DNA of 55,546 bases, taken from positions 1-55,546 of IMG/VR virus record IMGVR_UViG_3300043436_001494; one strand, 5' to 3'. Positions 14,619 through 52,937 of the stretch are shown here, one piece after another. Every line of letters begins with the position of its first letter. The first letter of the stretch is position 1. Under the pieces are notes generated by a model that was given only the letters and a program-made list of their open reading frames with translations, made no database searches and had not been told where the DNA came from. This DNA is from a virus. Made by a program: the position numbers and the translations under genes.

Positions 14619-17600
14619 ATGGCAAAGTCTGCATGTGCAAATAAAAATTTAAAGTTTAGATCCTCTGAAGCTTCAACTAAAGCTAACATGAGAACATTAG
14701 GTATCATCAATAAGTACCTGGATATCCTAGATTATAAAAAGTTTTCTGACTATAATTCTAAGTGGTCAAAGTATGCTACTGAAAAATATGGTATTGAAGG
14801 CAGACTGTTTACTCCAGAGTTTGGCGGAACTAAAGCTTTACCTAACAAAGAAATGTTCCATCAGATTGATGCTTTCAAAGGTATCTTCTATAAAGAGAAT
14901 GCATATCTTAGACCAGATTATTTACCAGAAAGATCTAGACCAGACATAGTTCCATTTGAATTTAACAAAGAGGATGTAAGTCAGGAGAGAGCAGAGAAAG
15001 TTCTTAATGCTCTTGCAGAAAAAATGATGCTTACTTTAGATGTACCATATCAGTACATAACAGAAGAGGAAGCAATTGAGACATTATCTAGAACAAGTAC
15101 TCCGTATAAAAATCAACCAGGGTTTTACTATGGTAATATGGTATATCTAGTTAAAGGTAAAGCTAACATGGGTACAATGATCCATGAGTTTGCCCACCCT
15201 TTTATTAAAGGTATATCAATCCAAAACAATAAGTTATTTAATAATTTATACAATAAAGCCAAGCTTACAGCTACCGGCCAAAGTATTATTGAGCAAGTGA
15301 AGGCTCTATATCCTAATCTGCAGTTTGAGTCTGATAGATTTATGGAAGAGGTTCTTGTTAGATCTCTAGAAAGAGATGCTGAGAACAAAATCAATAAGCT
15401 TCAGCAACAGGATCCGGAGTTTAATAACTTTATCAGCATGCTTGTATATGCTATAAAAGAACTCTTCAGAAAAATATCCAAAGTAATTTCTTTAAAAGAT
15501 CTTAAGTCAGATACAACCATAGATCAACTTACAGACATGTTACTGTTTGAGGACATTAAGATATCTAATCTTAAGTTTGATGAGACAGACTATGCTGAGA
15601 TGAAGAATGAGTATGATGATCTTGTAGATGCTCTCCAAAATGTGAGCACTAAAAATCTACAGAATGCCATCAACCAAACTTATGTTGAAGCCAAGTACCA
15701 AATCCAAGTATTGAAAGACTCAGGTAGACTTAAGAAAGAACTTGTTGGTGAAGGTGGTCTTGCTATACTTAGTAATCTTAAAGGTTTCCTAGCTAGATAC
15801 CAAAATGTTGATGTAAAAGATGTTCCTGTTGAAGATGTGGCAGAAGCACTACAAGCTCAACAAGAAGAATTCAGAGTAAGGGCCACTGCATTAGTTGAAA
15901 GTTTATCCCAGGTAAAAGTCTTTACTACTAAGATAGAGAACATCTTAAATGAGATGGAGAACAATGACAGTTACTTAACTGAGGATGGTATATCAAAAAT
16001 CTTATACTTTAATGACTTCTTATCTAGACAAGATAAATTCTTAAAGGCTATTAAAAAAACTATTGGCCTCTCAAGAACCAATGAGTTTGTAAAAGAAGTA
16101 TCTGATATATCTGATATAGTTTCTGTTGCCAGAGATAAAGTAAAAGAACTTCAAAAAGAGTATGCCCTTCAGTTCATGGAAGACAATACCTCATATATGC
16201 AGGATGAGCTTGAGCAAAGATTAACTGAAAGAATTAATACCTATCTTAAACAAGATAAAATACCACAGGCTCAGATAGATGAACTTGTAGAAAAGATCAT
16301 ATCTAATCCTGATGGTAAAACCGTCACTGTTAAAGATATGGGTGCTGGAATTAACTCTGCTCGTGCTGCAGAATTGGTTAGAGAAGTAGGTGAGTATTAT
16401 CAAAAAAGACTCACTAGAGATTCATTAAACAATTGGATAGAGGGTAATACAGAAGACATAGGTATTATGGAATCACTTCTTAATCCATACATGTCTATTG
16501 ATGATCCTCTTGGTAGCTTTGTTAGATTTATGAAAACAAAACTATCTGATGCTGAGCAAGTTAGTCTTAGAGAAGAAACTGATATGCTTGAAAGTCTTAT
16601 ACCATTAATGCAAGCTGCAGGTCTGAATCCAACAAACATTGAAAAATCAGGAGAGGCTCTACTATCTGTAGATAAAGTAGGTAGTACAAATGATAAAGGT
16701 GAGTATGAGGAGTTTGAAGTCTACAAAATCAAAAGTAAATTTGGCAATGGATGGAGAGCTGATAGAGATAGATTTGAATATGAATTTCAACAAGCCCAAG
16801 AAAAAGGAGATAAGACTGCAATGAAAGATGTTCTTGCAAGAAAATGGGACTGGGAAAAGAAATACATGCATCAGGAAAAAGTTCCTGAGTATTATGCCGT
16901 GCAGGATATCTGGAAACAAGAAAATAAAATTACTAATCCATTTACAAAACAGGTAGAAACTATTCCTGCTACTATAGCTACTGAGTCTTATCTTGAAAGA
17001 CAAAAAGCACTTGGTGAAATGATAGTATATAAAAGCAGAGACTTTACTACAATGGATGATCTTTATACCTTTACTGAAGCTGATGAAGCTCAGAAAAGAT
17101 ACAATGAGTTATTTCAGATATATGATAGCAAAGGCCAACCTAAAACCGGAGAGGAACTACAAAGAGTTTTAGTAAGACTAGAATACAGAAGACAGTCTAG
17201 TAAGTTCTATGAGTACATTCCTAATGAAGATAAAGTGCAAACAGACCTAGATTCTTTTGTTCAAGATTTGGCTGCTAGAAAAATCACAATGGAGTCTAAC
17301 CCTGAAGAATTCCAAAAAGCCCTTGAGAAGTTTGAGGAAAAAAACTTTAGAGTAGCCTATACTCCAAGCTACTATGAAAGTAGAGATACCATAATGACTG
17401 AGATAAAGACCCTTACTAGCAAAAGTAAGAAGTCTGCAGTTGCTACTGAACTAGCTGATCTGTACCGTCAAAGATTTGCATTATCTAATCTTGTTACTGA
17501 TAGGAATGGTCAGACAAATGCTCTTGAGTATAAACCTGAGCAGTTTAAACTTATGAAAGACATTGAGGAAAAAATAACTGATTTAGAAAGTAAAATAGAT

Positions 17601-30412: not shown

Positions 30413-30530
30413 CATTTTGTTATCACAAGGCTCTTTATCCTTGTTTCTATAGCTTTCACTATAGTTCAGACTATATCTTCACCAATTACTTGGTGTTGGG
30501 CACTCTTGGGTATATTATATTCTAAAATAA

Positions 30531-30659
30531 TGTGTGAGACAGGACTCGAACCTGCATCTCCAAATCACCGGCACCTGGAACTTTCACCCATCAATGAGGT
30601 TGATTACTTCTCACTCTAAAGTTACTCCTTCTTGCGTCTTCCAATTCCGCCACTCACAC
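30531..30659 (-). tRNA. tRNA-like (tRNA-Leu-type) module inside the group I intron
   Basis: Reading the minus strand: a perfect 7-bp acceptor GTGTGAG/CTCACAC with discriminator A, then TG and a D-arm GCG-GAATTGGAAGA-CGC almost identical in form to bacterial tRNA-Leu. The T-arm is GCAGG-TTCGAGT-CCTGT. No CCA is encoded. The part between D and T arms is ~85 nt instead of ~45 and has no clean 5-bp anticodon stem with 7-nt loop. An ACUUU/AAAGU-centred helix is the best pairing I find. The acceptor continues into an AT-rich stem (CTAAAATAA/TTATTTTAG), so the module caps an extended intron helix. It could be a decayed or intron-adapted tRNA, or a tRNA with an insertion; I cannot assign an anticodon. 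Confidence 0.6.
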
Positions 30660-30833
30660 ATTTATTTTAGTTTCAATACCTAGTCGTTGAACCTTTCCAG
30701 ACCATTTAAATCTAGACTTGGCTGCTGATTATCCATTAAAACATCTTTGTTATTTTCAAGCATTCACACTTACCGTTTCCAGTTATGTTGTAGCTAACAA
30801 AGCTTTAGGAACTCCCAGCAATTCACCCAATTT

Positions 30834-31604
30834 TTACCCAGGACCTGGGTTAAATGAATATCTTAAACCATCATAGTAATTACCCTTTTTAATTCTTATT
30901 GACATTGTAGATTGACTAATACCTAGATTACTAGCTATATTAGCAACTCTCTGCCATTCTTGAACTAAGATGTTGTTTTCATCAAAAACATAAACTTTCT
31001 TTGTTTTATCCGGTTTAATACTGGATTTCTTAAGTTTATCTTTTAGTTCATAACTCCACCTATAGTGACCACAAGAAAATCCTTTTCCTGAAGCTACTTT
31101 TGAAACTTTACCTTTTGGTAAGTTTAATTGTTTTTCTGCTTCAGCACAGGATTCATAAGATTTAAGATAAAAACCATTTATATTATATTGATGAACAGTT
31201 TTAGAAATAGGATTCTTTATTCTTTTAGAAGTATAAGCTTCTTTTAATGTTGCAGAAATCTTAAGTAATGTTTCATTACTATGGACAATTGCAACAGGAT
31301 TTTGAATAAAGTTTAAATCTGGAGACATAGATTCTATATAATAGGATTCTGTTTTAATTAAAACATCTCTACTACATTCTTCTATTACTTCAAACATAAA
31401 ACTATCACTACCATATTTATTAAAAGCATTTTGCATATACTTATTTGCATGTTTATTTTTTAGCAAATCTGATATATGTCTTTTTAGCCTATAATAAATA
31501 TTAATACTGCTACCAATATAACTGTGTTTATTACAAGTAATTTTGTAAATTCCACACTTTTGATTTAAGTCTTTGTGTAAACACTCTGAAATTAATTTCT
31601 TCAT
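30834..31604 (-). CDS. GIY-YIG homing endonuclease encoded in the MoxR intron
   Basis: 256 aa. The N-terminal nuclease domain has CGIYKI, then YIGSS, an R in YRLKRH and a Glu further on (~residue 90), the GIY-YIG layout. The rest carries DNA-binding repeats of NUMOD type (VHQYNINGFYLKSYESCAEAEKQLNL; KKVYVFDENN with WQRVANIASNLG), i.e. short beta-hairpin plus HTH units. The ORF lies in the intron P1 loop, and its final codons (NPGPG-stop) contain the internal guide sequence, so protein and ribozyme evolve together. Expected role: cleave intronless MoxR alleles and drive intron spread. Confidence 0.92.
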   Translation of the reverse strand: MKKLISECLHKDLNQKCGIYKITCNKHSYIGSSINIYYRLKRHISDLLKNKHANKYMQNAFNKYGSDSFMFEVIEECSRDVLIKTESYYIESMSPDLNFIQNPVAIVHSNETLLKISATLKEAYTSKRIKNPISKTVHQYNINGFYLKSYESCAEAEKQLNLPKGKVSKVASGKGFSCGHYRWSYELKDKLKKSSIKPDKTKKVYVFDENNILVQEWQRVANIASNLGISQSTMSIRIKKGNYYDGLRYSFNPGPG

Positions 31605-44791: not shown

Positions 44792-45785
44792 CAATTTGTT
44801 ATCCTATAGGCTCTTTATCCTATAGCTCTACACTTTCATAATTGTTATATGTGTAGTTCAGACTATATCATCATGTAAATTAATACATGCCCCACGCTCG
44901 TGTCACTTTACCATCTTCAGCATTACCTGGTAAGATTCCATGTGTTAGTCGTTGAACCTTCAATGCATTTCTGCAAAGCTTGGCTGCTGATTATCTACTT
45001 CTAGACTTTCCAGCAATTCATGGGGTTTAACATCTAAAAAAGATGTGGCCATAATTTCCATTACATTATTTTTATCAATTTTATTATCAAATGCTTCAGT
45101 ATATCCACCAAACTTCTTTCCCAAATACTTATTCTTCTTAAACTTTTTAATAATGTATTGTTCTAGGTAATAAGCTTGATAAAGAGGTAGGTCTAATACT
45201 TTTAAAATTTCTATATTAGCACAGTTAAATCTTGATTTAACATATTTGCCTTTATACAAACCAATTTTATAAGCATTATAATCAGGAAGATAAACAAAGT
45301 ATAATTTATAAGATACAAATGGGGTCCTTAATACAGTAGTAGTATTTATACCTTTATTATCTTTATAAAAATTATTACATGTTCCACACATATAAATATC
45401 ATGTAATTTTCTACAATACTCGGTATTGCAAATATTACATTTATACTTAATTGGTGTTAAATAATTTACATAGCTTGTTATTGCTGTAAAATTATACTTC
45501 TTACACAATGTGGTTAATCTGGTTTCATGATAAGATGATGTATTCCTAGTAGGAATTTTACCTTTTTGTTTAAGTGTACTCCAAGTAGTTTTTGTTAAAA
45601 ACTCTAAAGTTTTATGTTTAAACAATAAATGTGTTTTAGCATCTTTATACTCATTAATCCATTCAAATTGTTGATCTTCAGCTATCTTATTAATAAGACT
45701 GATAATTTGTTCTTTTGTAAAAAAATTCATATACAAATATATAAAAAATTACATAAAGATTCAATGTAATGATGACATTTAATTT
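44792..45785 (-). ncRNA. Group I intron in the radical SAM gene
   Basis: 994 nt. 5' exon ends ...GGCT, intron ends ...AATTG. P1: exon UGGCU pairs with guide GGCCA (45050-45046), with U-G at the site. P10: exon 2 GUAAU pairs over 5 bp with AUUAU (45055-45051), immediately before the guide. Core on the minus strand: P GAATTGCTGGAAAG (45019-45006), Q AATCAGCAGCCAAGC, R GGTTCAACGACTA (44958-44946), S GATATAGTCTGAACTAC (~44869-44853). The 3' hairpin loop GGATAAAGAGCC and the end GATAACAAATTG are nearly identical to the MoxR intron, so the two are related. Frame kept (262+611=873). The guide, P and Q are inside the endonuclease coding region. Confidence 0.95.
44960..45736 (-). CDS. Intron-encoded GIY-YIG-like endonuclease with zinc knuckle
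   Basis: 258 aa; Met3 (45730) may be the real start. Residues ~95-120 hold CNIC...CGTC, a zinc-binding pair. The catalytic part follows: LYFVYLPDYNAYKIGLYKG (variant of the GIY...YIG strands, as in T5orf172/MUG113-type nucleases), then R in VKSRF and a Glu in AYYLEQYI. The last ~35 codons encode the intron guide, P and Q elements. Expected to spread the intron into radical SAM alleles that lack it. Confidence 0.82.
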   Translation of the reverse strand: MYMNFFTKEQIISLINKIAEDQQFEWINEYKDAKTHLLFKHKTLEFLTKTTWSTLKQKGKIPTRNTSSYHETRLTTLCKKYNFTAITSYVNYLTPIKYKCNICNTEYCRKLHDIYMCGTCNNFYKDNKGINTTTVLRTPFVSYKLYFVYLPDYNAYKIGLYKGKYVKSRFNCANIEILKVLDLPLYQAYYLEQYIIKKFKKNKYLGKKFGGYTEAFDNKIDKNNVMEIMATSFLDVKPHELLESLEVDNQQPSFAEMH

Positions 45786-50773: not shown

Positions 50774-51658
50774 CTAGGCATAAATTTGTCCAACAAAAGC
50801 TTTTAATGTTGAACTCTTACATTTCTGTAAGGATTGGACTATATCTTCATTTGCATATACCAGTTTATAACCGGCAACTTCTTTATTCATTTTAAGCATG
50901 TTAGTAACACAACTCTTAGATAGTTTAGTAATAAAAGTTACTTCTTTTACAGACTCAGTAATATTTAATATTACATTTTCAGTATTTAGTATTAGTACAG
51001 GTTTACTTGTTGAATTTTGTAGACCTAACTTACCTTTCATCACATTATTTTCTAATTGTCTTTTGCTTAGTGCTTTTTTCTGAGCTTCAGTAATATTTAT
51101 TTGAGGAGTGACCGGATACTTATCAAATGGCTCACCATGTATTCTCCATACATAACCAAATGCTGTTCTTCTTCCATGTTTTCCTTTTGTAACAGCTGAA
51201 ATTTTTCCATTGTGTTTTTCAGTTCCTGTTACTATTAATGAAGCTTCTGACAAACTCTTAAATACATTAAGTAAGTTACCTTGCAGATCATACTGATCCA
51301 CTTTATATCTTACTTTATCTAAATACTCTTCACTAAATTTATAATCTCTAATTCCATCACCACCTGCTGTACAATTAACTAAGTTAGTATATAACTTAAT
51401 AGTATTGATCTCAGCTTGTTTTACTTCTTCAGAAGAGTTAAATTCAGCTATTAAAGATATTATAGGTTTAATCTCTCTATCTAAAAGAGATTTAATCCAA
51501 CAATGTCTATAATGTCTAGATTTTTTATTTTTAAAAGCCTGTTTACATGATGAAATGTGTCCAGATAATCTTGTAGATAATTTTTGTTTTGTTATCCCAA
51601 TATATCTAACTCCTGTTTCATCACTTAATGAATAAAGTTTGTATTTTGTATCTTCCAT
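50774..51658 (-). CDS. GIY-YIG homing endonuclease of the helicase intron
   Basis: 294 aa from MEDTKYKLYSLSDETG at 51658; an upstream ATG at 51868 would include core ribozyme sequence and is unlikely. YKLYSLSD...RYIGITKQ is the GIY...YIG pair, R in STRLSGH, a catalytic-type Glu in EEVKQAEINTI. NUMOD-like units follow (VDQYDLQGNLLNVFKSLSEASLIV; KPVLILNTENVILNITESVKEVTFI). The 3' end overlaps ribozyme element S (reading NEDIVQS), and the TAG stop ends exactly at the 3' splice site. Confidence 0.88.
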   Translation of the reverse strand: MEDTKYKLYSLSDETGVRYIGITKQKLSTRLSGHISSCKQAFKNKKSRHYRHCWIKSLLDREIKPIISLIAEFNSSEEVKQAEINTIKLYTNLVNCTAGGDGIRDYKFSEEYLDKVRYKVDQYDLQGNLLNVFKSLSEASLIVTGTEKHNGKISAVTKGKHGRRTAFGYVWRIHGEPFDKYPVTPQINITEAQKKALSKRQLENNVMKGKLGLQNSTSKPVLILNTENVILNITESVKEVTFITKLSKSCVTNMLKMNKEVAGYKLVYANEDIVQSLQKCKSSTLKAFVGQIYA

Positions 51659-51814
51659 ATCTTTGTGTGTTATGCAAAGTAAAGGTAGATAAAAATATTT
51701 AATTATACAAATGTCCCCCGTTTCCATGTAATAGCTAGTTACATGTACTCTATTTCTAGATAGTCTCTGAACCTTCATAAGCGGACTGCTTAAGCTTGGC
51801 TGCTGATTGGCATA

Positions 51815-51948
51815 TAATATTAAAAAAAGTATAGTGTCGGCTGAACCCCCAAAACGGTTGGGCACCACACCCCATTCACCTTATAGGAATTGAACCTATC
51901 CACCAACACTATACATGAGGATTCGAACCTCCACCTTTTTTAATATTA
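51815..51948 (-). ncRNA. tRNA-like/T-arm-bearing insertion in P5 of the helicase intron
   Basis: An outer AT-rich stem (51936-51948 with 51815-51828) encloses three parts. The first is a hairpin GAGG-TTCGAAT-CCTC with a classic T-loop (51932-51916). The second is a 12-bp stem with one G-T pair (51914-51903 with 51840-51829). Inside that are a second T-arm, ATAGG-TTCAATT-CCTAT (51899-51883), and a CCCAA/TTGGG hairpin. The whole makes a multi-branched, cloverleaf-like fold. I cannot place a D-arm or anticodon, so it is not a normal tRNA gene. It parallels the tRNA-like module of the MoxR intron. Confidence 0.55.
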
Positions 51949-51996
51949 CTTAGCTTTCCAGACAATTAAAGGGATTTAAAGAGAACAGGTATGTTT

Positions 51997-52937
51997 ATCC
52001 TCTGTGCAGCTTTCCTTTCATTACCATATGCATGCATAATAATACCCTGTTTAAGATTAGGAATGTTCACACCCTCATTCAACTGTAGTACAGTAGAGAG
52101 CTTGTCTATTTTTCCTTCCTTGAACATGAGTAAATTATCCTCAGACTCCTTATTACCGCTGTGATAGCTGTATTCACACAATCTGTCAGCCTGAGCTTGA
52201 GTATTAGCAAATATTATACACTTAGTCTGGATACTTTCCATTAGCTTTTTAGTATATAACTCTTTACTTGGATACTCCATCATAGCTTTCATTCTCATCA
52301 CTCTGAGCATATGCATGTTACCGGAACCTACATCAATCCTTCTAGACCAGTAAGTATAGTTATCAATCTCAGATGCCATATACTGTCTGTTGCCAGTTTT
52401 GACCGGAAACACTTTGTTATGTGTCAGCTGTAACTGATGCACTACTATCTGGTAATCATTTAGTATTCCATTCTCTACAGCATCATCTGCTTTGAATGTA
52501 TATACTACAGGACAGAACTCATTTACTAACTTACCCTTCTCTGAATAATCACGCTTAGGTGGAGTACCAGTTAGACCAAGGATTTTACCTTTGTATAACT
52601 GGAGGAATCCCCGGTGACTATCCAGTAGACTATGCATCTCATCCAAATAGACAGCATCATAATCATTAGGATTGTGTTTGTTCAGACTTAAGTAAGTAGT
52701 GAATGTCATTCTACCTAATAAATTTTCTTTACCAAATTTCACAGCATCATCTTTCCAGGACTGGAAGATTGCCTTCTTTGGTGCTACTACAAGACATCTC
52801 ATTAGTGGAGTAGTATTGAGTTCCATGTGAGTAAGACCAACTAGAGTCTTACCGACCCCTGTAGCCAAAACAACAGAACAAGTTCTCTTACCATTAGTAG
52901 CCTCTAATGCTTCTCTTTGAATGTCATTTTTGTTCAT
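51997..52937 (-). CDS. SF2/SNF2-like DEAD/H helicase, exon 1 (main part)
   Basis: Starts MNKNDIQREALEATNGK; Walker A (motif I) is ATGVGKTL, motif II (DEAD/H-like) is YLDEMHSL, motif III is LTGTPPK. Motifs IV-V lie in the second RecA domain (CIIFANTQAQADRL; LNEGVNIPNLKQGI), ending AAQRI just before the intron. Joined to 50620-50773 it is 364 aa with complete motif VI QRIGR. This compact helicase form is common in phages. A diverged partial copy of the N-terminus lies upstream at 53737-53850. Confidence 0.9.

What the first reader, a model, noticed from the sequence alone, without database searches (positions are those of the whole stretch)
51815..51948. Second tRNA-like insertion, in P5 of another intron
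The helicase intron has an AT-rich stem in P5 capped by a multi-branched fold with two canonical T-arms (TTCGAAT and TTCAATT loops) and a 12-bp acceptor-like stem. Together with the MoxR intron, two unrelated intron positions in one genome carry T-arm-bearing modules on AT-rich stems. That suggests a mobile or repeatedly recruited tRNA-like domain rather than chance.
Basis: partly seen in the sequence, partly recalled or inferred. Interest (0 to 1): 0.75.

Follow-up and report, generated by a model that had tools for sequence, protein, structure and literature searches.

The report
Double T-arm cap on phage intron
A self-splicing intron in a crAss-like phage carries, on the tip of one stem, a recently acquired tRNA-like RNA module that also sits on unrelated RNAs of other phages, which suggests that phages trade such RNA caps among their structured RNAs.

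Summary
P5 of the helicase group I intron ends in a 14-bp AT-rich stem, T-arm 1, a 12-bp stem, T-arm 2 and a GG-loop hairpin (minus strand, 51815-51948). All three exact GGTTCNANTCC matches in the window lie in intron caps (0.1 expected).

The module is a conserved RNA family without an Rfam match. Homologs occur in two Klebsiella phages and four IMG/VR contigs; one, L211, was found by a covariance model it did not help build (91.8 bits). Eleven base pairs show compensatory changes (0/500 shuffles).

It is mobile or recruited: the same intron in relatives (91.7-93.7% identical over the aligned 5' part) has a short GAAA hairpin instead. In the Klebsiella phages it caps an arm of a large tmRNA-like RNA, on which 75 loci carry 24 unrelated caps. 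The MoxR intron behaves likewise: same-site relatives are empty or carry other caps.

The MoxR tRNA-like cap belongs to a different family, so the two modules are separate recruitments. Neither is a decoding tRNA. Function is inferred: most likely a tRNA-elbow mimic that binds a host tRNA-binding factor, with the intron as carrier. In the window, T-arm 2 rests on comparative evidence; thermodynamics alone does not predict it.

The parts
50774..51996 (-). Group I intron interrupting the helicase gene at motif VI (QRI|GR); splice sites inferred
   Evidence: Rfam Intron_gpI 51652-52048 (45.9 bits, below the gathering score of 50) and a second piece 50815-50936; relatives without the cap reach 52-54 bits; exon reading CAGAGGAT + AGGTAGG restores QRIGR
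51815..51828 (-). 3' strand of the AT-rich P5 extension
   Evidence: pairs with 51935-51948, predicted pair probability 0.80-1.00
51935..51948 (-). 5' strand of the AT-rich P5 extension
   Evidence: as above
51828..51935 (-). Double T-arm module (cap), match to covariance model R1
   Evidence: 118.7 bits (it is in the model); homologs 91.8-108 bits
51917..51931 (-). T-arm 1 (GAGG-TTCGAAT-CCTC)
   Evidence: pair probability 0.88-0.95; compensatory A-U/C-G
51903..51914 (-). inner 12-bp stem, 5' strand
   Evidence: 7 of 12 pairs with compensatory change among homologs
51829..51840 (-). inner 12-bp stem, 3' strand
   Evidence: as above
51883..51899 (-). T-arm 2 (ATAGG-TTCAATT-CCTAT)
   Evidence: compensatory changes at 2 of 5 pairs; pair probability 0.02 by energy alone
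51856..51880 (-). GG-loop hairpin GGU-GAAU-GGG(GUGUGGUG)CCC-A-ACC, the most conserved element; D-loop-like GG
   Evidence: invariant loop except U/C in L211; GGC/GCC to GGU/ACC compensatory change
50774..51658 (-). intron-encoded homing endonuclease ORF with NUMOD1 (the GIY-YIG family is an inference from the sequence)
   Evidence: Pfam NUMOD1 E 7e-4, below its cut-off; relatives 59-86% identical
30531..30659 (-). Separate tRNA-Leu-like cap in P8 of the MoxR intron (intron match 30447-30876)
   Evidence: RF00005 33.7 bits with a 73-nt insert at the anticodon region; absent from 97.9% identical relative L257

Best explanation
The feature is a conserved, self-contained RNA module, about 108 nt, with two T-arms and a GG-loop hairpin that may form a tRNA-elbow-like core. 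Shown: it replaced the GAAA-capped tip of P5 in this intron recently, the predicted intron core is unchanged, and homologs cap an arm of a tmRNA-like RNA in Klebsiella phages or lie outside introns in other phages. Inferred: it belongs to a pool of structured caps that phages exchange among large RNAs. Inferred: the intron serves as an expression and stability platform, and the module works by presenting a tRNA-elbow-like surface to a host tRNA-binding protein (for example a decoy for a tRNA-modifying, processing or tRNA-targeting defence factor, or recruitment of such a factor).
For: Homology and covariation: 77% DNA identity over 97 nt to Klebsiella phages (E 4e-9); L017, L018 and L019; independent member L211 at 91.8 bits, E 6e-18; 11 pairs with changes on both sides, 0/500 shuffles, slid controls 1-5. 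Recent acquisition: relatives with 91.7-93.7% identity over the 5' part of the intron lack 124-127 nt at exactly the P5 tip. Core fold is the same with and without it. Both loops are TTCRA-type with G-C closure, which fits conserved tertiary T-loops.
Against: No binding partner, expression or phenotype is known. T-arm 2 of the window copy is not favoured by thermodynamics (0.02), and KP13-27 has a broken closing pair there (intact in BU9). The module is rare: no homolog in E. coli genomes or plasmids, 398 Pseudomonadota genomes or, by pattern, GTDB genomes. It was seen in a group I intron only in this phage.
Confidence: 0.55

Rival explanations
1. Neutral hitch-hiker: group I intron stem tips tolerate insertions, and a selfish or randomly recombined hairpin module sits there without function for the phage.
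For: Empty alleles are common and splice-core folds are unaffected; caps are highly variable.
Against: The internal fold is kept by compensatory changes among phages of different hosts and conserved sequence extends through unpaired loops, so it is constrained somewhere.
Confidence: 0.22
2. Splicing helper: the cap is a peripheral domain that stabilises this intron or recruits a host tRNA-binding protein (as CYT-18 TyrRS does in fungal mitochondria, from general knowledge) to assist splicing.
For: It sits on P5, next to the P4-P6 domain; tRNA-likeness is a known route to protein-assisted splicing (general knowledge).
Against: Close relatives of the intron do without it; homologs cap a non-intron RNA or lie in intergenic DNA.
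Confidence: 0.11
3. Processing signal: the T-arm stems recruit RNase P, RNase Z or other tRNA-processing enzymes to cut the intron or host RNA.
For: T-arm plus stacked helix is a minimal RNase P substrate (general knowledge); T-arms present.
Against: No 3' CCA or acceptor-like single-stranded end; the 12-bp stem is closed inside a larger stem.
Confidence: 0.08
4. Chance resemblance or decayed tRNA genes.
For: ARAGORN calls one copy (L211) a tRNA-Ser.
Against: No tRNA by ARAGORN or Rfam here; T-arm motif excess; covariation and an independent model hit.
Confidence: 0.03

Closest known systems
tRNA (Rfam RF00005)
   Same: T-arms with 7-nt TTCRA-type loops and G-C closing pair; GG-containing D-loop-like hairpin
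   Different: Two T-arms, no anticodon arm, no acceptor with CCA end; no Rfam or ARAGORN match at this site
Group I intron peripheral domains (for example P5abc)
   Same: Extension of P5 outside the conserved core
   Different: tRNA-like module with homologs in non-intron RNAs; absent in near-identical introns
tmRNA and its tRNA-like domain; TLD-only tmRNA of mycobacteriophage DS6A (PMC4131195, PMC11915505)
   Same: Phage-borne tRNA-like RNA that could titrate a host factor; homologs here cap an arm of a tmRNA-like phage RNA
   Different: The module itself has no acceptor end, no tag, and no tmRNA-family match
Viral 3' tRNA-like structures (PMC5723415) and double T-loop modules of T-box and RNase P RNAs (general knowledge)
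   Same: T-loops used outside tRNA as recognition or packing elements
   Different: Different architecture, DNA phages, internal stem tips

Membership tests
tRNA | Match to RF00005 or ARAGORN model | tested here: not met
tRNA | Anticodon arm with 7-nt loop and readable anticodon | tested here: not met
   no ARAGORN call; no such arm in the conserved structure
tRNA | T-arm with TTCRA loop | tested here: met
   two copies
Group I intron (RF00028), host of the module | P3-P8 core and splice sites | tested here: met
   full-length model match E 1.3e-10, 4 bits under the gathering score; cap-less relatives pass it
Group I intron (RF00028), host of the module | Self-splicing | not testable with these tools
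   needs in vitro assay
tmRNA (RF00023, RF04321) | Match of the module to the family | tested here: not met
   no match at this site
Double T-arm module defined here (model R1) | R1 score well above background with both T-arms and GG hairpin | tested here: met
Double T-arm module defined here (model R1) | MoxR cap of the same window belongs to it | tested here: not met
   only one R1 hit in the window at E<=1
tRNA-elbow mimic | T-loop/D-loop tertiary contact or T-loop modification | not testable with these tools
   needs probing or mass spectrometry

The most novel reading that the evidence does not exclude
Phages maintain a pool of exchangeable structured RNA caps (T-arm mimics, possibly ribozymes, others) that are swapped onto fixed stems of large carrier RNAs (a widespread phage tmRNA-like RNA, group I introns), as tail-fibre tips are swapped in proteins, and use them as RNA effectors against host tRNA-related or defence factors.
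Probability: 0.35. Interest if true: 0.93.

Novelty: new variant of a known kind. Interest (0 to 1): 0.78.

Why it matters
It links three things thought unrelated: peripheral domains of group I introns, tRNA mimicry, and a largely unannotated tmRNA-like RNA of enterobacterial phages. If caps are traded because they act on host factors, introns are not only parasites but carriers of RNA effectors, and the caps are a catalogue of RNA tools that can be screened directly. Even at minimum it defines an RNA family without a match in Rfam 15 and a natural experiment (capped and cap-less alleles of one intron).

Tried and rejected
Pattern for a T-arm upstream of the P4 strand AATCNGCAGCC in viral contigs: 10 hits, all ordinary tRNA genes or chance. 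GTDB scan for the T-arm 2/GG-hairpin pattern: 13 hits, all chance or normal tRNAs. E. coli genomes and plasmids: none. R1 in 398 Pseudomonadota genomes: none, without a positive control. T-arms in the other intron loci of relatives: none within intron cores. Eighty helicase relatives from the search for related loci showed no intron-core signature in the DNA fetched. Rfam on the other cap-bearing loci L258, L259 and L288: no match on the caps at gathering threshold. Paper searches for T-arm modules in group I introns or phage RNA caps: nothing on point; the library lacks most subscription journals.

Full report
WHAT IS THERE. The window is a 55.5-kb virus record whose gene content looks crAss-like: DnaB-like helicase, a DNA polymerase, primase and giant virion-type ORFs (crAss assignment is an inference). 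Its helicase gene is interrupted at motif VI (QRI|GR) by a group I intron with a homing endonuclease ORF. In place of the P5 loop there is an AT-rich 14-bp stem (51948-51935 with 51828-51815) that ends in T-arm 1 and a 12-bp stem. This stem encloses T-arm 2 and a hairpin GGU-GAAU-GGG(GUGUGGUG)CCC-A-ACC. The stretch folds far better than shuffles (z -4.19, 0/200). The core of the intron is predicted to fold identically with the cap and with the short tip of a relative. The T-arm sequence motif is in about 30-fold excess in the window, and every copy is in an intron cap. No tRNA is called by ARAGORN or Rfam at this site.

IT IS A CONSERVED FAMILY. Blastn found the module in Klebsiella phages KP13-27 and BU9, 77% identical over 97 nt. 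The string GGGGTGTGGTGCCCARCC found three IMG/VR contigs (L017, L018, L019), all with the full arrangement T-arm 1, stem, CGGTGG, T-arm 2, GG hairpin, GGTTYAGCCG. In a five-sequence alignment 11 of 27 pairs change on both sides and 85.9% of cells pair; no shuffle reaches this, and sliding the partners gives 33-43%. The covariance model R1 then picked out a further independent locus, L211 (91.8 bits, E 6e-18), which has new compensatory pairs in the inner stem (GCUGC/GCAGC) and one change in the GG loop. BU9 (L016) has an intact T-arm 2 where KP13-27 has a mismatch. In L015-L017, L019 and L211 the inner stem carries an AGUA- or UGUA/GAA-type internal loop (reminiscent of a sarcin-ricin motif) that is a plain helix in the window and L018 (read from the sequences). 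L142, at 36.7 bits, is a looser relative beside a tRNA-Leu gene.

IT WAS ACQUIRED RECENTLY. Relatives of the same intron, found through the endonuclease, share 93.7% (L038) and 91.7% (L039, L040) of aligned positions over the 5' part of the intron, up to the start of the endonuclease ORF. Their P5 is GCUAAG-GAGAAAUC-UAUGCC or GCUAAG-UCAGAAAUGA-UAUGCC, a GAAA-capped hairpin; 124-127 nt are present only in the window. The direction (gain here rather than loss in all relatives) is inferred from parsimony. So the cap replaced a GNRA tip.

THE MOXR INTRON SHOWS THE SAME BEHAVIOUR WITH OTHER CAPS. Its P8 tip is a short hairpin in 19 of 23 complete relatives, including one 97.9% identical (L257). The window has a tRNA-Leu-like cap there; L258 has a different cap of about 60 nt, and L259-L261 a third of about 130 nt, mounted on similar AT-rich stems (CUAAAAYAA/UURUUUUAG). 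R1 does not match the MoxR cap, so the two tRNA-like caps of this genome are separate recruitments. A 35-nt stretch of the L259 cap (E 0.009, so weak) recurs in an unannotated RNA between two tRNA-Lys genes of the gut crAss-like phage cr126_1.

THE KLEBSIELLA CONTEXT. There the module (L015:2500-2608) caps an arm of a roughly 1-kb stretch of RNA-like intergenic sequence between structural genes. Parts of this sequence match 824 phage records. It contains GCAAACGA...UAA frames coding ten-residue peptides such as ANEEMYLAVA, ANDEQFLAVA and ANDDVVLMAA, with synonymous changes between phages, which resemble tmRNA tags; Rfam tmRNA models give only sub-threshold matches (11-26 bits), and I found no complete tRNA-like domain. 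At one arm (after GUGAUUAAUAAUGGGC) 75 loci carry 24 unrelated caps, five of them (22 loci) with a T-arm, one being the window's family. So cap exchange on a fixed stem is common outside introns.

MECHANISM. Shown: conserved fold, empty sites, homologs on other carriers, undisturbed predicted core. Inferred: the excised intron is a stable carrier; the module folds into a tRNA-elbow-like surface, with the invariant GG of the hairpin available to a T-loop as G18/G19 are in tRNA; it binds a host tRNA-binding factor. Variation of caps would then reflect host-dependent selection. A TLD-only tmRNA in mycobacteriophage DS6A resembles molecules reported to inhibit tmRNA, perhaps by titrating SmpB (PMC4131195), a precedent for such decoys. 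How caps move is unknown; recombination in stems is plausible but untested.

LIMITS. In the window, T-arm 2 is not favoured by energy rules (0.02); the alternative fold is 4.4 kcal/mol better in isolation, and only comparison supports T-arm 2. The family is small (seven records including the window). No intron other than this one is known to carry it. L015, L016 and L019 are close to each other, so the covariation rests on about five lineages. Paper searches found no description of this module, but the library is incomplete.

Noticed in passing
L015:1860-2940, L020 (HK620 15300-16800), L019:6400-7400 and others: A tmRNA-like RNA with a ten-codon tag frame (AND....LAA, LAVA or LMAA type) in parts of 824 phage records, unannotated in those examined; in HK620 it lies between late promoter pR' and terminator tQ. 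No complete tRNA-like domain identified.
   Followed up: partly
L288, L304, L326, L340 (after GTGATTAATAATGGGC): A cap of this tmRNA-like RNA contains CTGACGAGTCC...GGACGAAAC, a hammerhead-ribozyme-like string; Rfam gave no match at gathering threshold for L288.
   Followed up: no
30447-30876; L245-L268: MoxR intron P8 tip is empty in most relatives; three different caps in the window, L258 and L259-L261.
   Followed up: yes
L397:655-785 (cr126_1): Unannotated RNA between two tRNA-Lys genes in a tRNA array shares a 35-nt stretch with the L259 intron cap.
   Followed up: partly
L150, L154, L183, L195, L217, L228, L230, L233, L244; L164, L198, L199, L203, L237, L239; L192, L232: Several recurring phage RNAs with two or three T-arms within about 30 nt of each other; in 48 of 121 such pairs neither T-arm is in an ARAGORN tRNA.
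   Followed up: partly
L041-L044: The endonuclease relative (59-60% identical) sits just downstream of an uninterrupted helicase gene, as a free-standing gene.
   Followed up: no
44850-45095: A third group I intron in the window with a short P5 and no cap (64.5 bits).
   Followed up: no
L211:3725-3808: ARAGORN calls a tRNA-Ser on the module, probably false; such calls may hide this family in tRNA annotations.
   Followed up: partly
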